A stretch of 64,000 nt of DNA, from the NCBI RefSeq assembly GCF_000504205.1, contig NZ_AZAJ01000001.1, positions 1,276,879 through 1,340,878 of the forward strand, written 5' to 3'. Below, in pieces: positions 39,200-45,197 of this stretch (its first letter is position 1; each line of letters opens with the position of its first letter). Made by a program: the position numbers and the translations under genes. Origin of the DNA: Methanolobus tindarius DSM 2278 (GTDB taxonomy: Archaea; Halobacteriota; Methanosarcinia; Methanosarcinales; Methanosarcinaceae). A model generated the notes under the pieces. That model was given only the letters and a program-made list of their open reading frames with translations, was not told the origin of the DNA and did not search any database.

Positions 39200-39499
39200 T
39201 TAATTGTAAGCCACGAGATATTCAATGGTTTCTTCCTTACAGGAAGTAACTTCTTTCAATTTATCAGTGGATTGCTTAAGAGTCTCAATGGTTTTCTCAA
39301 ACTTTGCCATCTGCTCTTTTGCCTTGCGGACCTTTTCATTCTCTACTTCCAGTTTTTCCATGAGTGCTTTACGCTGTTCCTCAGGAATGTCTGCATTGTT
39401 TATCTGCTGCTGGTAATTTAAAGAGAGTTTTACGTACTTACGAAACATCTCATTCATGACATCAAGGTCATTTTCCAGTTCTTTAATTGTTTTTGCCAT
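39200..39499 (-). CDS. small coiled-coil protein
   Basis: The 99-residue, highly charged protein is predicted to be almost entirely helical. Two long heptad-containing stretches flank DIPEEQRKAL: the first from IKELENDLDVMNEMFRKY, the second from MEKLEVENEKVRKAKEQ. It could be a prefoldin-like or structural helical hairpin, but the prefoldin beta elements are not visible. Function unknown. It is monocistronic with an AT-rich upstream promoter region around 39595-39615. Confidence 0.7.
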   Translation of the reverse strand: MAKTIKELENDLDVMNEMFRKYVKLSLNYQQQINNADIPEEQRKALMEKLEVENEKVRKAKEQMAKFEKTIETLKQSTDKLKEVTSCKEETIEYLVAYN

Positions 39500-39737: not shown

Positions 39738-40256
39738 TTACATTTCAGATAACTGGAAAGTTGTAACACCCGGATGTGCAGCCACCTTTGCCATGATCTC
39801 TTCCTTACATGAATCCGGAATACTATCAAAAGCCGTATCCCTCTCAAGGAAGTCTACAATAGGAACATTATCCGGAATCTCAACAACATCATAACCGTTT
39901 ATCCTGAACATTGCTTCAAGAACATCGATCTTTTCATCTCTTTGTCCTTCGCCTACAAGCTCAATTGCCATGTTCTTGCTAAGTTTGTTATATTCCTCAC
40001 AGTCCTGAAATACAGCAAGTCCTGCATCCATTGTGTCGGCTGCTGCAAAAATGTGCAGGAGACATGCGTTTCCCTCTTCAAACATGTCTCCAATTGCTTT
40101 CATGCCTTCGAGAAATCCCTTCTCAATAATCTCGTTTATGCTGTAACCCAAAGCAAGGGCTTCATTTGCTGCGTTTTCTGCGCCTTTCTCATCAAAATCC
40201 AGTATGGATCTTTTTGCTTCATCTATAATTTGTGTAATAGTTTTTTCCTGAGACAA
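39738..40256 (-). CDS. methyltransferase corrinoid-protein paralogue lacking the cobalamin motif
   Basis: Residues 1-80 closely match the helical cap of MtmC/MtbC/MttC-type corrinoid proteins (AANEALALGYSINEIIEKG, GMKAIGDMFEEG, LLHIFAAADTMDAGLAV). In those proteins the next domain begins with a GDIHDIGKN-type segment, whose His ligates cobalt. Here the equivalent is VGEGQRDEKIDVLEA, with no DxHxxG motif. The Rossmann part is short, and the 172-residue total compares with about 215 in the family. The protein therefore probably cannot carry a corrinoid in the usual way. No methyltransferase partner lies nearby. A sensory or regulatory role, or decay, are both possible. Confidence 0.75.
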   Translation of the reverse strand: MSQEKTITQIIDEAKRSILDFDEKGAENAANEALALGYSINEIIEKGFLEGMKAIGDMFEEGNACLLHIFAAADTMDAGLAVFQDCEEYNKLSKNMAIELVGEGQRDEKIDVLEAMFRINGYDVVEIPDNVPIVDFLERDTAFDSIPDSCKEEIMAKVAAHPGVTTFQLSEM

Positions 40257-40535
40257 ATTATCATCCCTTTGATTGGATTAGCACATCATAAATTGCTTAT
40301 TTTAGTGCAATTTAGTCACACTTGTGACAATTTTATCATCATATATAAAATCATCGAGTAATTAGCAGTAATCTATCACGAATTTACATAAAAAAATAAA
40401 AATATCACAAATAATTATAAAATACTGTTTTTCAACAAATAAAATATATCAGAAAGAATAATATTTTCAATCAAAGGTAGCTATTTGACAAAAAAAGGAA
40501 AGATAATGCATCCATAAAGGATGCAAATAAACGAT

Positions 40536-41663
40536 TTATTTTCCAAGAACAATTCTTGCAATATCCTCACCAACATCTGATGTGCCTGCTGAACCACCCA
40601 TATCGTATGTCTGGACCTTTGCTTCACTTATGTTGGTCTCAATTGCAGAAACAATAGTATCTGCAGCTTCCTTTTCACCCATCTGTTCGATGAGCATAGC
40701 TCCTGCCCAGATTGTTGCTATTGGGTTTACCTTGTTCTGTCCCTTGTACTTTGGTGCTGAACCGTGAATTGGCTCAAACATGCTTGTACCTTCAGGGTTG
40801 ATGTTTCCTCCGGGAGCAAGTCCGAGACCGCCCTGAACCATTGCACCAAGGTCAGTGATAATGTCACCGAACATGTTTGGTGTTACAACAACATCGAACC
40901 ATTCAGGGTTCTTGACAAACCACATGGTCATTGCATCAACATAGTTGAAATCTGTAGTTACATCAGGATGCTTTTCAGCAACTGCATTGAACTCCTCTCT
41001 CCAGAATCCGTATATATCTGAAAGGACGTTTGCCTTGTCAACTGATGATACGTGTTTCTTGCTCTTCTCAGCAAGGTCGAATGCATAGCTGATTACTCTC
41101 TGTGTTCCTTCCTTTGAGATCATACCAACCTGGTAACCGATCTCTTCGCTGTCAGTCTCAATGTCAAGACCGAACTTTGCGTTGTAAAGTGTTCTGTGAA
41201 CCTCAAGCAAGTCCTTGCTAGTGCCTGACTTTGCACGTCCACCGATTCCTATATAGAAGTCTTCGGTGTTTTCCCTGACAACTGTAAAGTCAATGTCTGC
41301 AGGAGTCTTGTCCTTTATAGGACACCATACACCATCAAGAAGCTTGATTGGACGGAGATTGATGTACTGGTCGAAGTAGAACCTTGCAGCAAGAAGGATA
41401 CCTTTTTCAAGCACTCCAGGTGCGATTCTGTCATCTCCGATTGAACCAAGGTAGATTCCTTTGTAACCTGAAAGTTCTTTCAGGGAATCTTCAGAAATAA
41501 GTTCTCCTGTTTCAAGATAGTGATCTGCTCCGTGTGGGAACTCTACCCAGTCAACATCAAAACCGAATTTCTCACCTGCAGCATCGATGACCTTACGTCC
41601 TTCTGCTATGATCTCAGGTCCGATACCGTCTCCTGGTATTACAGGTATTTTATACTGCGTCAT
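40536..41663 (-). CDS. leuB: 3-isopropylmalate dehydrogenase family protein
   Basis: The 375-residue beta-decarboxylating dehydrogenase oxidises 3-isopropylmalate (leucine) or homoisocitrate (coenzyme B/aksF). The family motifs are [29 protein letters not shown], the [13 protein letters not shown] region and the [25 protein letters not shown] block that binds NAD. Sequence alone does not settle LeuB versus AksF. It follows the small dehydratase subunit gene by 56 bp on the same strand, which favours a leucine-type pair. A RBS-like AGGGATT precedes the ATG. Confidence 0.88.
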
Positions 41664-42384: not shown

Positions 42385-42828
42385 ATGGTCAGCAAAAAGG
42401 ATGAACTCATACTATCCATACTGCAACAGGGAGCCAGAACACCAATATCTGAAATCGCAAAAGAAGTGGGTCTTAGCGAAAATGGTGTCAGGTACCGGCT
42501 CGAAAAACTGGAAGATGAAGGATACATCAAAAACTATACCGTATTATTAAATCCCAGAAAATTCGGAAAAGGGACTTTTGCCATCTTTAATCTGGAAATG
42601 GAACCAAAGAAGACAAAGGAAAGTATTAAAAAACTAATGGATATTGAAGAGTTTATCAAAATATACCAGACAACCGGACAATATTCCATCAAAGCCTTTG
42701 GCCTTTTTAACGATGAGGAGGAACTGACTAATTTTATAAACAACCGCCTTCTCTATGAAATTCCGGTACAGAATTACAGTGTAGAGATAATTACAAAAAA
42801 TATTAAGGACAGCATATATCACATCTGA
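42385..42828 (+). CDS. Lrp/AsnC-family transcription regulator
   Basis: The 147-residue regulator has an N-terminal helix-turn-helix (ISEIAKEVGLSENGVRYRLEKLEDEGYI) and a C-terminal RAM-like beta-alpha domain for ligand binding or oligomerisation. Lrp proteins control amino-acid metabolism genes. This gene is divergent from leuD-leuB, so the shared 185-bp spacer is the natural place for a binding site. The 3' end overlaps the convergent beta-lysine acetyltransferase gene by 10 bp. Confidence 0.87.
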   Translation: MVSKKDELILSILQQGARTPISEIAKEVGLSENGVRYRLEKLEDEGYIKNYTVLLNPRKFGKGTFAIFNLEMEPKKTKESIKKLMDIEEFIKIYQTTGQYSIKAFGLFNDEEELTNFINNRLLYEIPVQNYSVEIITKNIKDSIYHI

Positions 42829-43664
42829 ATAAGTTTCTTGTACCAGATGTTCATACTCTCAATTGAACCGGAAATATTGGTATTGTTCACAAGAGTTCCT
42901 GCGTATGAGTATGAACTGCGTGAGAAAACAATATTCATTCCATAAGATCTTGCTCTTGCTATTGTATACGCGGTTATAATTCCCATTTCACGCATCTTTG
43001 CATCCATCTTTTTCAATAGATAATAAGAATAACCCCTGCCACGGTATTCAGGTAATGTTGCAAAATCAGTCATCTCAACATTACTGTTTTCAATATCCAT
43101 TTCACATGAAGCCAGGGCAACAATTTTTTCATCTTTCCTTATTCCAAAATATACAAGGTTCTCCTGCATTGTCTTTAGAAGATATTCAGGGTCATGTATA
43201 GGAAACGGATAACTTGGGAAGACCCTGTCATATATTCTTGCCATTTCCCGGACATCCTCTTCAGTGCAAACAAAACAATCTTCTTCACCTGAAAGTTTCA
43301 CCTCTTTTGGAGTATTATGCTTGGAAAGAGCGGTACTGATAACTGATTCAACCACGTCAGGACTTTGCTCATTCTCACGTTCATCAGAAAGGAACTTGGC
43401 CATGAAGCTTGCACCTTCATCACCATTATACATACCAGGCACATAAGCTTCCTCAACATGGCCTGTTTCCTGAAAATAATCTTTTGCAGAAGAAGGAATT
43501 TTGGAGAAGATCTTTGAATAACCATTCTCCTCTGCCATTTCTTCTACCCTGGAGGGTATTTTGGAATAATCCTCTGGTGAAAGCTTCATCAAATATACAC
43601 GGTCATTGAAAGGACCGTGCTGGATTATTGAATTGTTGATTTTAAGAACCTGGTCACTCGACAT
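42819..43664 (-). CDS. ablB: beta-lysine N6-acetyltransferase
   Basis: AblB acetylates beta-lysine to N-epsilon-acetyl-beta-lysine, a compatible solute made by methanogens at high salinity. The protein has a family-specific N-terminal region ([20 protein letters not shown]) and a C-terminal GNAT domain ([26 protein letters not shown]). The ATG at 43664 starts within the end of ablA, an 11-bp overlap that indicates translational coupling. Its 3' end overlaps the convergent Lrp gene. Confidence 0.92.
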
Positions 43665-44967
43665 TCCTTCTCTCCATACGTTCAGTGTCTTCAGGTACAA
43701 GGCTCAATGCATCATCAAAGTCAGAAAGCAGTTTGGCAATTCCCACAGATCTGAATTCCTGGGCTTCGTCCAGTTTGAGCTGCAAAGCACAATCATCACA
43801 TTTTCTGTCGCAATAAACTGCCTCATATGAATCCGGTTCTTTATAAGAGGTAATGACTCCCTCATAATTCCTGAGGATTACTTTGTTGGTTGACCAGGAA
43901 ATCAGGTAATTTGGCATTACCGGAATTTTACCTCCTCCTCCCGGAGCATCAATTACATAGGAAGGAATGGCAAAGCCACTTGTATGGCCAATGAGATTTT
44001 CCATTATTTCGATACCTTTACCCACAGATGTCCTGAAGTGAGTCAGGCCTTCTGACAGGTCACACTGATACAGGTAATATGGACGGACACGATTTTCCAC
44101 AAGCTTATGGAAGAGTTTTTTCAGTATCCTGTAACAATCGTTTACTCCTGCAAGCAGAACAGTCTGATTACCTAATGGAACACCTGCGTCTGCAAGCTTT
44201 CTGAGTGCCTGCTTAGAAGAAGCTGTAACTTCACGTGGATGATTGAAATGGGTATTTAGCCATACTGGGTGATGTTTCTTCAGGACTTCCACAAGATTAT
44301 CAGTTACACGGTAAGGTAAAACCACCGGCATTCTGCTGCCTATTCTTATGACCTCAACATGAGGAATTGCACGTAATTCTGTAAGAATCCAGTCCAGATA
44401 CTCATCAGAAAGCATCAAAGGATCCCCACCTGATAAAAGAACGTCTCTTACCTGAGGATTATTTGCTATGTACTCTATTCCCTGAAGAACTTCGTCTTTT
44501 TCCGGAATGGAATCTATATCGCCTACTTTTCTTTTTCTTGTACAGTGCCTGCAATACATGGAACATACATTGCTTATATGAAAAAGAACCCTGTCAGGAT
44601 ACCTGTGTGTTATTCCAGGCACAGGACTGTCGTGGTCTTCACTCAAAGGATCTGCCATTTCATCGCAGGCGACAATAAGTTCCTGCGGTGAAGGGAATGA
44701 TTGCATGAAAATTGGGTCATTTCTGAAATCTTCTGCTTCTATGAGAGAAAGATAGTATGGTGTAATGGATAGTGGAAATTTTTCAAGTGTTTTTAGTAAA
44801 GCCTCCCTTTCTTCAGCCTCAAACTTGATATCAAGAAGTGTTTCAAATGTATCAATATCATTTACTGAATGTCTTAACTGCCACTTCCAGTCATTCCATT
44901 TTGCAAGAGGTTCTTCAGAGTCAATTCTATCTACTATATTTTGCTGCCTGCGTTTGTAAGATTGCAT
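43654..44967 (-). CDS. ablA: lysine 2,3-aminomutase
   Basis: This radical-SAM, PLP-dependent enzyme converts L-alpha-lysine to L-beta-lysine, the first step to the osmolyte made with ablB. The cluster motif CSMYCRHC (C135, C139, C142) and the downstream [19 protein letters not shown] are diagnostic. So is the conserved region around [13 protein letters not shown], near the PLP site. The ATG at 44967 gives the normal N-terminus; the longer frame from 45051 encodes an atypical Cys-rich leader. A TATA-like TTATATAAT near 45130-45140 would give a long 5' leader of about 140 nt, which could carry salt-dependent control. Confidence 0.93.
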
Positions 44968-45197
44968 CAAATCACTTAATAATGTATGAATCTGCAGAAG
45001 AGAGTTGAAAACAGAACACACTGAACCGGATTTTTGGTTTGTGTTACACAAATAAATCCCAAAAATATTCAGCGCCGATCTTCTGCATGCGTATCAATTC
45101 TGATATGGAAACAAATAATCTTTTTAGATATTATATAATTTATTTGAGATATCAGATGAATATACCTTTTCTTTTTGCAGAATCCGCAGAACATACT

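What the first reader, a model, noticed from the sequence alone, without database searches (positions are those of the whole stretch)
39738..40256. Corrinoid-protein paralogue that lost its cobalamin-binding motif
The helical cap of methylamine/methanol corrinoid proteins is well preserved, but the DxHxxG cobalt-ligand segment is replaced and the Rossmann half is shortened. The remaining sequence is an intact frame with conserved-looking residues, not obvious decay. It could have become a sensor of methyltransferase partners or of methylation state, or bind another ligand.
Basis: partly seen in the sequence, partly recalled or inferred. Interest (0 to 1): 0.55.

Follow-up and report, generated by a model that had tools for sequence, protein, structure and literature searches.

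The report
Corrinoid-protein mimic without B12 site
A methane-producing archaeon carries an intact, conserved gene for a protein built like the B12-carrying proteins of its methyl-group metabolism but without the parts that hold B12, so it probably works by binding other proteins rather than by carrying methyl groups.

Summary
Window 39738-40256 (minus strand) encodes 172 aa: the helical cap of a methylamine-type corrinoid protein (PF02607, E 8.5e-16), followed by only the first half of the Rossmann core. Aligned with MttC-type proteins, the cobalt ligand His is Arg106, its DxH Asp is Gly104 and the HxxG Gly is Lys109, invariant in all 16 orthologues. The end of the core with the GG motif is missing.

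It is not decay. Intact orthologues sit at the same locus in 12 of 27 Methanolobus genomes and 4 of 6 genomes of a second genus, under purifying selection (mean dN/dS 0.12-0.18); the altered half is at least as constrained as the cap. One close relative keeps only a broken remnant.

Beyond the finding: Methanolobus also has three families of cap-only relatives that mostly stop five residues after an FGN tail; each of the 27 genomes has at least one. All four types group together, apart from B12-binding paralogues (support 75).

Best reading: a cobalamin-free corrinoid-protein derivative acting as a protein-interaction module, perhaps regulating methyltransferase or activator partners. That function is inferred. 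The closest precedent is class II LitR, which kept only the cap and works without B12.

The parts
39738..40256 (-). Whole gene, TTG start, 172 aa, TAA stop: cobalamin-free corrinoid-protein paralogue
   Evidence: purifying selection
40005..40238 (-). Helical cap (residues 7-84), PF02607; (F/Y)LP of canonical caps replaced by Cys65-Leu66-Leu67
39930..39950 (-). Replaced cobalt-ligand segment EGQRDEK (residues 103-109): Asp to Gly104, His to Arg106, Gly to Lys109
39747..39974 (-). Half Rossmann core (residues 95-170): b1-a1-b2-a2-b3 in the model (b3 of low confidence); lacks the rest of the core and the GG motif
40291..40312 (.). Inverted repeat AATTGC-N10-GCAATT between a TATA-like box and the start codon; exact in 9 of 12 Methanolobus orthologues (spacer 10-11), core TTGC..GCAA in 11 of 12
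39200..39499 (-). Small coiled-coil (prefoldin-like) protein, fixed downstream neighbour (named by eye); present with or without the corrinoid-like gene
40536..41663 (-). Isopropylmalate/isocitrate-type dehydrogenase, fixed upstream neighbour (named by eye)

Best explanation
The gene encodes a corrinoid protein that has lost its cofactor (a pseudo-corrinoid protein). A methylamine-type corrinoid protein (MttC/MtbC-like) came to lie at a housekeeping locus before Methanolobus and a second genus split, lost the cobalt ligand and the second half of the Rossmann core, and was then kept by selection. Shown here: ancestry, loss of the cobalamin-binding features checked, conservation, synteny and purifying selection. 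Inferred: it binds no cobalamin and works through protein contacts, most likely as a regulator or competitor that docks where true corrinoid proteins dock (the shared methylcobamide:CoM methyltransferase MtbA, the activator RamA, or the caps of true corrinoid proteins). The three cap-only families of Methanolobus would be further members of the same set.
For: PF02607 without PF02310. The place of the ligand His holds Arg (12), Asn (2), Asp (1) or Ser (1) and that of the Gly holds Lys in 16 of 16 orthologues. GG motif and (F/Y)LP present in 11 of 11 canonical proteins of the genome, absent here. Mean dN/dS 0.12, 0.13 and 0.18 in three groups; 0.08-0.12 in the core half against about 0.20 in the cap. 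Same locus in 16 genomes. Three cap-only families in the genus, at least one in 27 of 27 genomes. One clade of degenerate caps, UFBoot 75. Precedent: class II LitR keeps only the four-helix B12-binding_2 domain and works without B12 in association with a LOV protein (PMC9758184, passages). In MttB-MttC the cap and core loops make the primary contacts, and MtbA serves several corrinoid proteins (PMC9842639, passages), so a cap could still dock.
Against: No link to methyltransferase genes: neighbours are a dehydrogenase, a prefoldin-like and a UMP-kinase-like gene (named by eye). The place of MttC Arg130 carries Asp or Glu in 16 of 16, so docking on MttB in the known way is unlikely. The DxH Asp itself is kept in 4 of 16. 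The lower dN/dS of the core half in the close group comes from more synonymous change, not from less protein change: dN is 0.064 in the core half and 0.054 in the cap there, 0.112 against 0.131 and 0.091 against 0.121 in the other two groups. The gene is missing from 15 of 27 Methanolobus genomes, so it is dispensable. No binding or expression data were available.
Confidence: 0.4

Rival explanations
1. It is a protein-interaction or scaffold factor unrelated to methylotrophy: the cap fold was recruited to another process, for example with its fixed neighbours (dehydrogenase, prefoldin-like protein).
For: Same two neighbours in 16 of 16 genomes, none of the neighbours a methyl-transfer gene by eye; fast sequence change between genera (32-34% identity against 84-85% for the dehydrogenase) suits a changed role.
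Against: The neighbours stay together in 14 Methanolobus genomes without the gene, so they do not need it; gaps of about 240-280 nt on either side in the window suggest separate transcription, and in one genome (L053) the prefoldin-like gene is 1.2 kb away.
Confidence: 0.25
2. It binds another ligand in the remodelled core (metal, heme, nucleotide), like the AppA SCHIC domain, which binds heme in a B12-type fold.
For: The core half holds the invariant residues Lys109, Glu126, Asp135, Asp140, Cys150, Lys151 and Gln168. SCHIC precedent (PMC9144470, passages); the SCHIC structures 4hh3 and 4heh appear low in the structural list (Z 7.0 and 6.7), which that tool calls a middling value.
Against: No His is invariant; only one Cys (150) is among the invariant columns. 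The half core lacks the later strands that complete a Rossmann ligand pocket.
Confidence: 0.2
3. It is a decaying pseudogene.
For: Missing motif and shortened core; one close relative (G058) keeps only a remnant in two frames; absent as an intact gene in 15 of 27 genus members.
Against: Open in 16 of 16 orthologues over two genera; mean dN/dS 0.12-0.18; strictly kept residues in the altered half.
Confidence: 0.03
4. It still binds a corrinoid in another way (base-on or by the cap), for example as a chaperone or delivery protein.
For: Ancestry; fold match to MttC (Z 17.1, partly built in by the alignment used).
Against: Ligand His, the Gly, the cap motif and the GG motif are gone and a Lys stands at the Gly place.
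Confidence: 0.07

Closest known systems
MttC/MtbC, methylamine corrinoid proteins (TIGR02370; 7xcn)
   Same: Cap and first half of the core; 25-36% identity to 20 canonical relatives; best sequence and structure match
   Different: No DxHxxG, no GG motif, no (F/Y)LP, half the core missing, not next to a methyltransferase gene
Class II LitR (PmlR2, PplR of Pseudomonas)
   Same: Keeps the four-helix B12-binding_2 domain, thought to have lost B12 binding, works without B12 through another protein (PMC9758184, passages)
   Different: Those are MerR-type DNA-binding regulators; this protein has no DNA-binding domain and is from a methanogen
SCHIC domain of AppA
   Same: B12-type fold that changed its ligand and acts in a protein complex (PMC9144470, passages)
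   Different: SCHIC has a His-ligated heme; here half a core and no invariant His
Cap-only proteins of Methanolobus (three families found here)
   Same: Same cap lineage, no cobalamin site, free-standing
   Different: They end at the first core strand, mostly with an FGN tail; the protein of the finding goes on to the third strand

Membership tests
Methyltransferase cognate corrinoid proteins (TIGR02370 / MttC-MtbC-MtmC) | Helical cap PF02607 | tested here: met
   E 8.5e-16, residues 11-82
Methyltransferase cognate corrinoid proteins (TIGR02370 / MttC-MtbC-MtmC) | B12-binding core PF02310 | tested here: not met
   No match up to E 1; not among 14 genome places
Methyltransferase cognate corrinoid proteins (TIGR02370 / MttC-MtbC-MtmC) | DxHxxG cobalt-ligand motif | tested here: not met
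   EGQRDEK instead
Methyltransferase cognate corrinoid proteins (TIGR02370 / MttC-MtbC-MtmC) | GG motif in the C-terminal half of the core | tested here: not met
   Region absent
Methyltransferase cognate corrinoid proteins (TIGR02370 / MttC-MtbC-MtmC) | Family cut-off score | tested here: not met
   75.4 bits against 215.3
Methyltransferase cognate corrinoid proteins (TIGR02370 / MttC-MtbC-MtmC) | Holds a corrinoid | not testable with these tools
   Needs purified protein
Class II LitR | Four-helix B12-binding_2 domain without B12-binding domain | tested here: met
Class II LitR | N-terminal MerR-type DNA-binding domain | tested here: not met
   Cap starts at residue 7-11; no other Pfam domain above its cut-off
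SCHIC (heme-binding B12-type domain) | Conserved His heme ligand | tested here: not met
   No His among the invariant or 90% columns of A1; at most 12 of 16 in one column
SCHIC (heme-binding B12-type domain) | Fold of the SCHIC domain | tested here: inconclusive
   4hh3 Z 7.0, 4heh Z 6.7 over about 80 residues

The most novel reading that the evidence does not exclude
Methanolobus has a set of about four cobalamin-free corrinoid-protein mimics (this protein plus three cap-only families), descended from one methylamine corrinoid protein, that tune methylotrophic methyl transfer by occupying the docking sites of true corrinoid proteins on methyltransferases, MtbA or the activator RamA: a layer of post-translational control by catalytically dead carrier proteins.
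Probability: 0.22. Interest if true: 0.75.

Novelty: new variant of a known kind. Interest (0 to 1): 0.5.

Why it matters
Corrinoid proteins are treated as cofactor carriers. A conserved, selected derivative without the cofactor site, with a genus-wide set of cap-only relatives, suggests that the carrier fold itself has a second use in methylotrophic methanogens. It would give a concrete handle on how these archaea choose between many parallel methyltransferase systems. It also warns that counts of corrinoid proteins made from cap matches alone include proteins that probably cannot carry a methyl group.

Tried and rejected
Pseudogene reading: rejected for the intact copies by dN/dS and conservation. 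Overlapping antisense frame (39942-40361, plus strand) as an explanation of the low synonymous change in the cap: rejected, because that antisense frame holds stops in 15 of 16 orthologues. Frameshifted or read-through core behind the cap-only genes: rejected for this genome, because no core remnant was seen by eye in three frames of 300 nt downstream of the three genes. A regulon sharing the inverted repeat AATTGC-N8..12-GCAATT: 6 places in the genome (control pattern 0); the other five lie in or at the ends of unrelated frames, so no regulon was found. Relatives outside the two genera: the core-half profile gave 16 strong matches (E below 1e-35) in 237 genomes of the class; the next best listed were frames of 200 aa or more at 7e-8 and weaker, matching positions 2-54 or fewer of 82 (at the laxer threshold two shorter frames, of 155 and 168 aa, appear at about 1e-4). 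First structure model, orthologues only: pLDDT 58.7, poor in the core. The second, with 20 canonical rows, 74.6; its likeness to MttC is partly built in. Paper searches that showed no report of such proteins in methanogens: (open-licence papers; listings seen); the passages seen of the Methanolobus psychrophilus transcription-start paper (PMC5378194) do not name them.

Full report
What is there. The gene at 39738-40256 on the minus strand is one open frame of 172 aa with a TTG start behind AGGGATGATAA. Residues 11-82 are the helical cap of corrinoid proteins (PF02607, E 8.5e-16); the rest matches no Pfam family above its cut-off. Over residues 9-139 the best solved relative by sequence is the trimethylamine corrinoid protein MttC, and the best NCBIfam model is TIGR02370, far under its cut-off (75.4 against 215.3 bits).

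What is missing. PMC9842639 (passages and outline seen) describes MttC as cap 2-84, loop 85-95 and core 96-216, with a triad His107-Asp105-Thr158 under the cobalt. In alignment A4 Asp105 falls on Gly104 here, His107 on Arg106 and Gly110 on Lys109, without a gap in that stretch; Thr158 falls on Phe167, where the alignment is uncertain. phmmer instead sets a gap opposite the His of 7xcn; neither alignment gives a His. Over 16 orthologues the His place holds Arg in 12, Asn in 2, Asp in 1 and Ser in 1, the Gly place Lys in 16, and the Asp place keeps Asp in 4. Of 15 cap proteins found by similarity in this genome, 11 have the DxHxxG and GG motifs and 4 have neither: this one and three cap-only proteins. 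The cap also lost the (F/Y)LP stretch that all 11 canonical paralogues have (read by eye); it is CLL here. That this stretch faces the cofactor is recalled, not tested.

Conserved, and not decay. Searches of the 111 held genomes of the family and of the 237 of the class find 16 strong matches: 12 of 27 genomes of the own genus and 4 of 6 of a second genus. Five named records with the gene are Methanolobus vulcani (two strains), M. bombayensis, M. psychrotolerans and M. profundi; equal contig lengths show that they are five of the own-genus genomes. The own genus is therefore Methanolobus; the second genus is not named by any search. In all 16 the gene lies between the dehydrogenase and the prefoldin-like gene; in the 12 Methanolobus genomes all eleven neighbours tested keep their order. 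In 14 other Methanolobus genomes the two neighbours are adjacent with no match to the gene between them, and in G058, whose dehydrogenase is 98% identical, only a remnant of residues 41-85 in two frames is left. So the gene was probably present before the two genera split and was lost several times. In G066 of the second genus the neighbours are adjacent without it; G069 gave no dehydrogenase match at the threshold used and its site was not seen. In nine genomes of eight other genera neither the gene nor the prefoldin-like gene was found beside the dehydrogenase, within at most 1.5 kb and less at contig ends.

Selection. Pairwise dN/dS (Nei-Gojobori, own script) averages 0.12 (7 close genomes, 21 pairs), 0.13 (5 more distant, 10 pairs, synonymous change near saturation) and 0.18 (second genus, 6 pairs). 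As ratios of mean dN to mean dS, the core half (103-172) has 0.08, 0.08 and 0.12 and the cap (1-85) 0.20, 0.20 and 0.20. In the close group this comes from synonymous change (0.27 in the cap, 0.79 in the core half), not from fewer protein changes: dN is 0.054 in the cap and 0.064 in the core half; in the other groups it is 0.131 against 0.112 and 0.121 against 0.091. So the altered half is at least as constrained as the cap. An antisense gene does not explain the low synonymous change of the cap. The dehydrogenase has 0.03-0.04 and the prefoldin-like gene 0.10-0.17. The two genera share only 32-34% identity here, against 84-85% for the dehydrogenase next door: fast change, yet with invariant Lys109, Leu113, Glu114, Met116, Asn120, Val124, Glu126, Ile133, Asp135, Asp140, Cys150, Lys151, Pro162 and Gln168.

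Structure. With orthologues alone the model is good only in the cap (pLDDT 58.7). With 20 canonical rows added it reaches 74.6 and shows cap helices 7-19, 23-36, 40-60, 66-81, then b1 95-99, a1 108-119, b2 123-127, helices between 133 and 160, and b3 167-170. The best match is MttC in 7xcn, Z 17.1, rmsd 4.0 over 153 residues (Foldseek E 1.8e-8). The canonical rows partly build in that likeness, and residues 101-103, 162-164 and 168-172 are under pLDDT 50.

A wider set. Similarity searches over 27 Methanolobus genomes find three cap-only families. At E 1e-22, 26, 24 and 24 genomes match; these counts overlap, because the families recognise each other at 40-50% identity, and together every one of the 27 genomes has at least one. 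Of 64 places, 58 could be read as whole frames: 54 of 58 have FGN near the end, 52 of 58 stop exactly five residues after that motif or its variant, and 0 of 58 have the (F/Y)LP motif. The three genes of this genome show no core remnant behind them (by eye) and, by eye, no corrinoid-dependent methyltransferase genes within about 5 kb. In a 13-genome sample of nine genera, listed cap matches in frames under 160 aa are 12 in four Methanolobus genomes and 1 in a genome of another genus (G083); that list is cut off at weak scores. A 77-column tree of 101 caps puts this protein and the cap-only families in one clade beside methylamine-type proteins (UFBoot 75); the order inside that clade is not reliable, and the second-genus sequences sit on a long branch inside a cap-only family, against their synteny.

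How it may work. [quoted passage not shown] that Arg130 belongs to MttC is my reading, as MttC has 216 residues. Here that place is Asp or Glu in 16 of 16 and the corrinoid that ties the pair together is gone, so docking on MttB in the known way is unlikely. MtbA, which serves several corrinoid proteins, and RamA remain possible partners; that is inference. The nearest precedent is class II LitR: only the four-helix domain kept, B12 not needed, activity through association with a LOV protein (PMC9758184, passages). The SCHIC domain of AppA (PMC9144470, passages) is the precedent for a changed ligand, but no His is invariant here. I therefore rank a cofactor-free interaction module first (0.4), a role outside methylotrophy next (0.25), another ligand next (0.2).

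Regulation. Upstream of the 12 Methanolobus orthologues, TTTATAT stands about 93-96 nt before the start in 10 of 12, and between it and the start codon an inverted repeat AATTGC-N10..11-GCAATT is exact in 9 of 12, with its core TTGC..GCAA in 11 of 12. The exact pattern occurs once in the window (0.04 expected) and at 6 places in the genome (0 for the control pattern). The other five give no common context. It may be an operator or an RNA element of this gene.

Limits. No expression, binding or genetic data were available. The paper library holds open-licence papers only. Genome counts rest on one genome per species. Gene names of neighbours were given by eye, without a family search.

Noticed in passing
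G000:C1:3001844-3002200, 173196-173510, 759111-759425 (L129, L157, L187): Three cap-only corrinoid-like genes, of families conserved over Methanolobus, ending at the first core strand, mostly with an FGN tail (FGS in L129); by eye none lies beside corrinoid-dependent methyltransferase genes in this genome.
   Followed up: partly
window 40291-40312: Inverted repeat AATTGC-N10-GCAATT between a TATA-like box and the start codon of the gene, exact in 9 of 12 Methanolobus orthologues; possible operator or RNA element.
   Followed up: partly
L072:2894-3026 (G058): Broken remnant of the same gene in a close relative: homology to residues 41-85 in two frames.
   Followed up: yes
L173 (G044) and L201 (G059): Cap-only genes with an in-frame TAG and TGA respectively: recent decay, or for TAG possible pyrrolysine read-through.
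   Followed up: no
G038:C9:205883-206080: Weak match to the core-half profile (E 1.4e-4, positions 3-67) in a 168-aa frame with one TAG inside, in another genus.
   Followed up: no
window 40005-40256: In close relatives the cap half shows about a third of the synonymous change of the core half (dS 0.27 against 0.79).
   Followed up: partly
window 42819-45051: Acetyltransferase and lysine 2,3-aminomutase-like pair, probably the N-epsilon-acetyl-beta-lysine osmolyte genes ablB/ablA (named from the sequence by eye).
   Followed up: no
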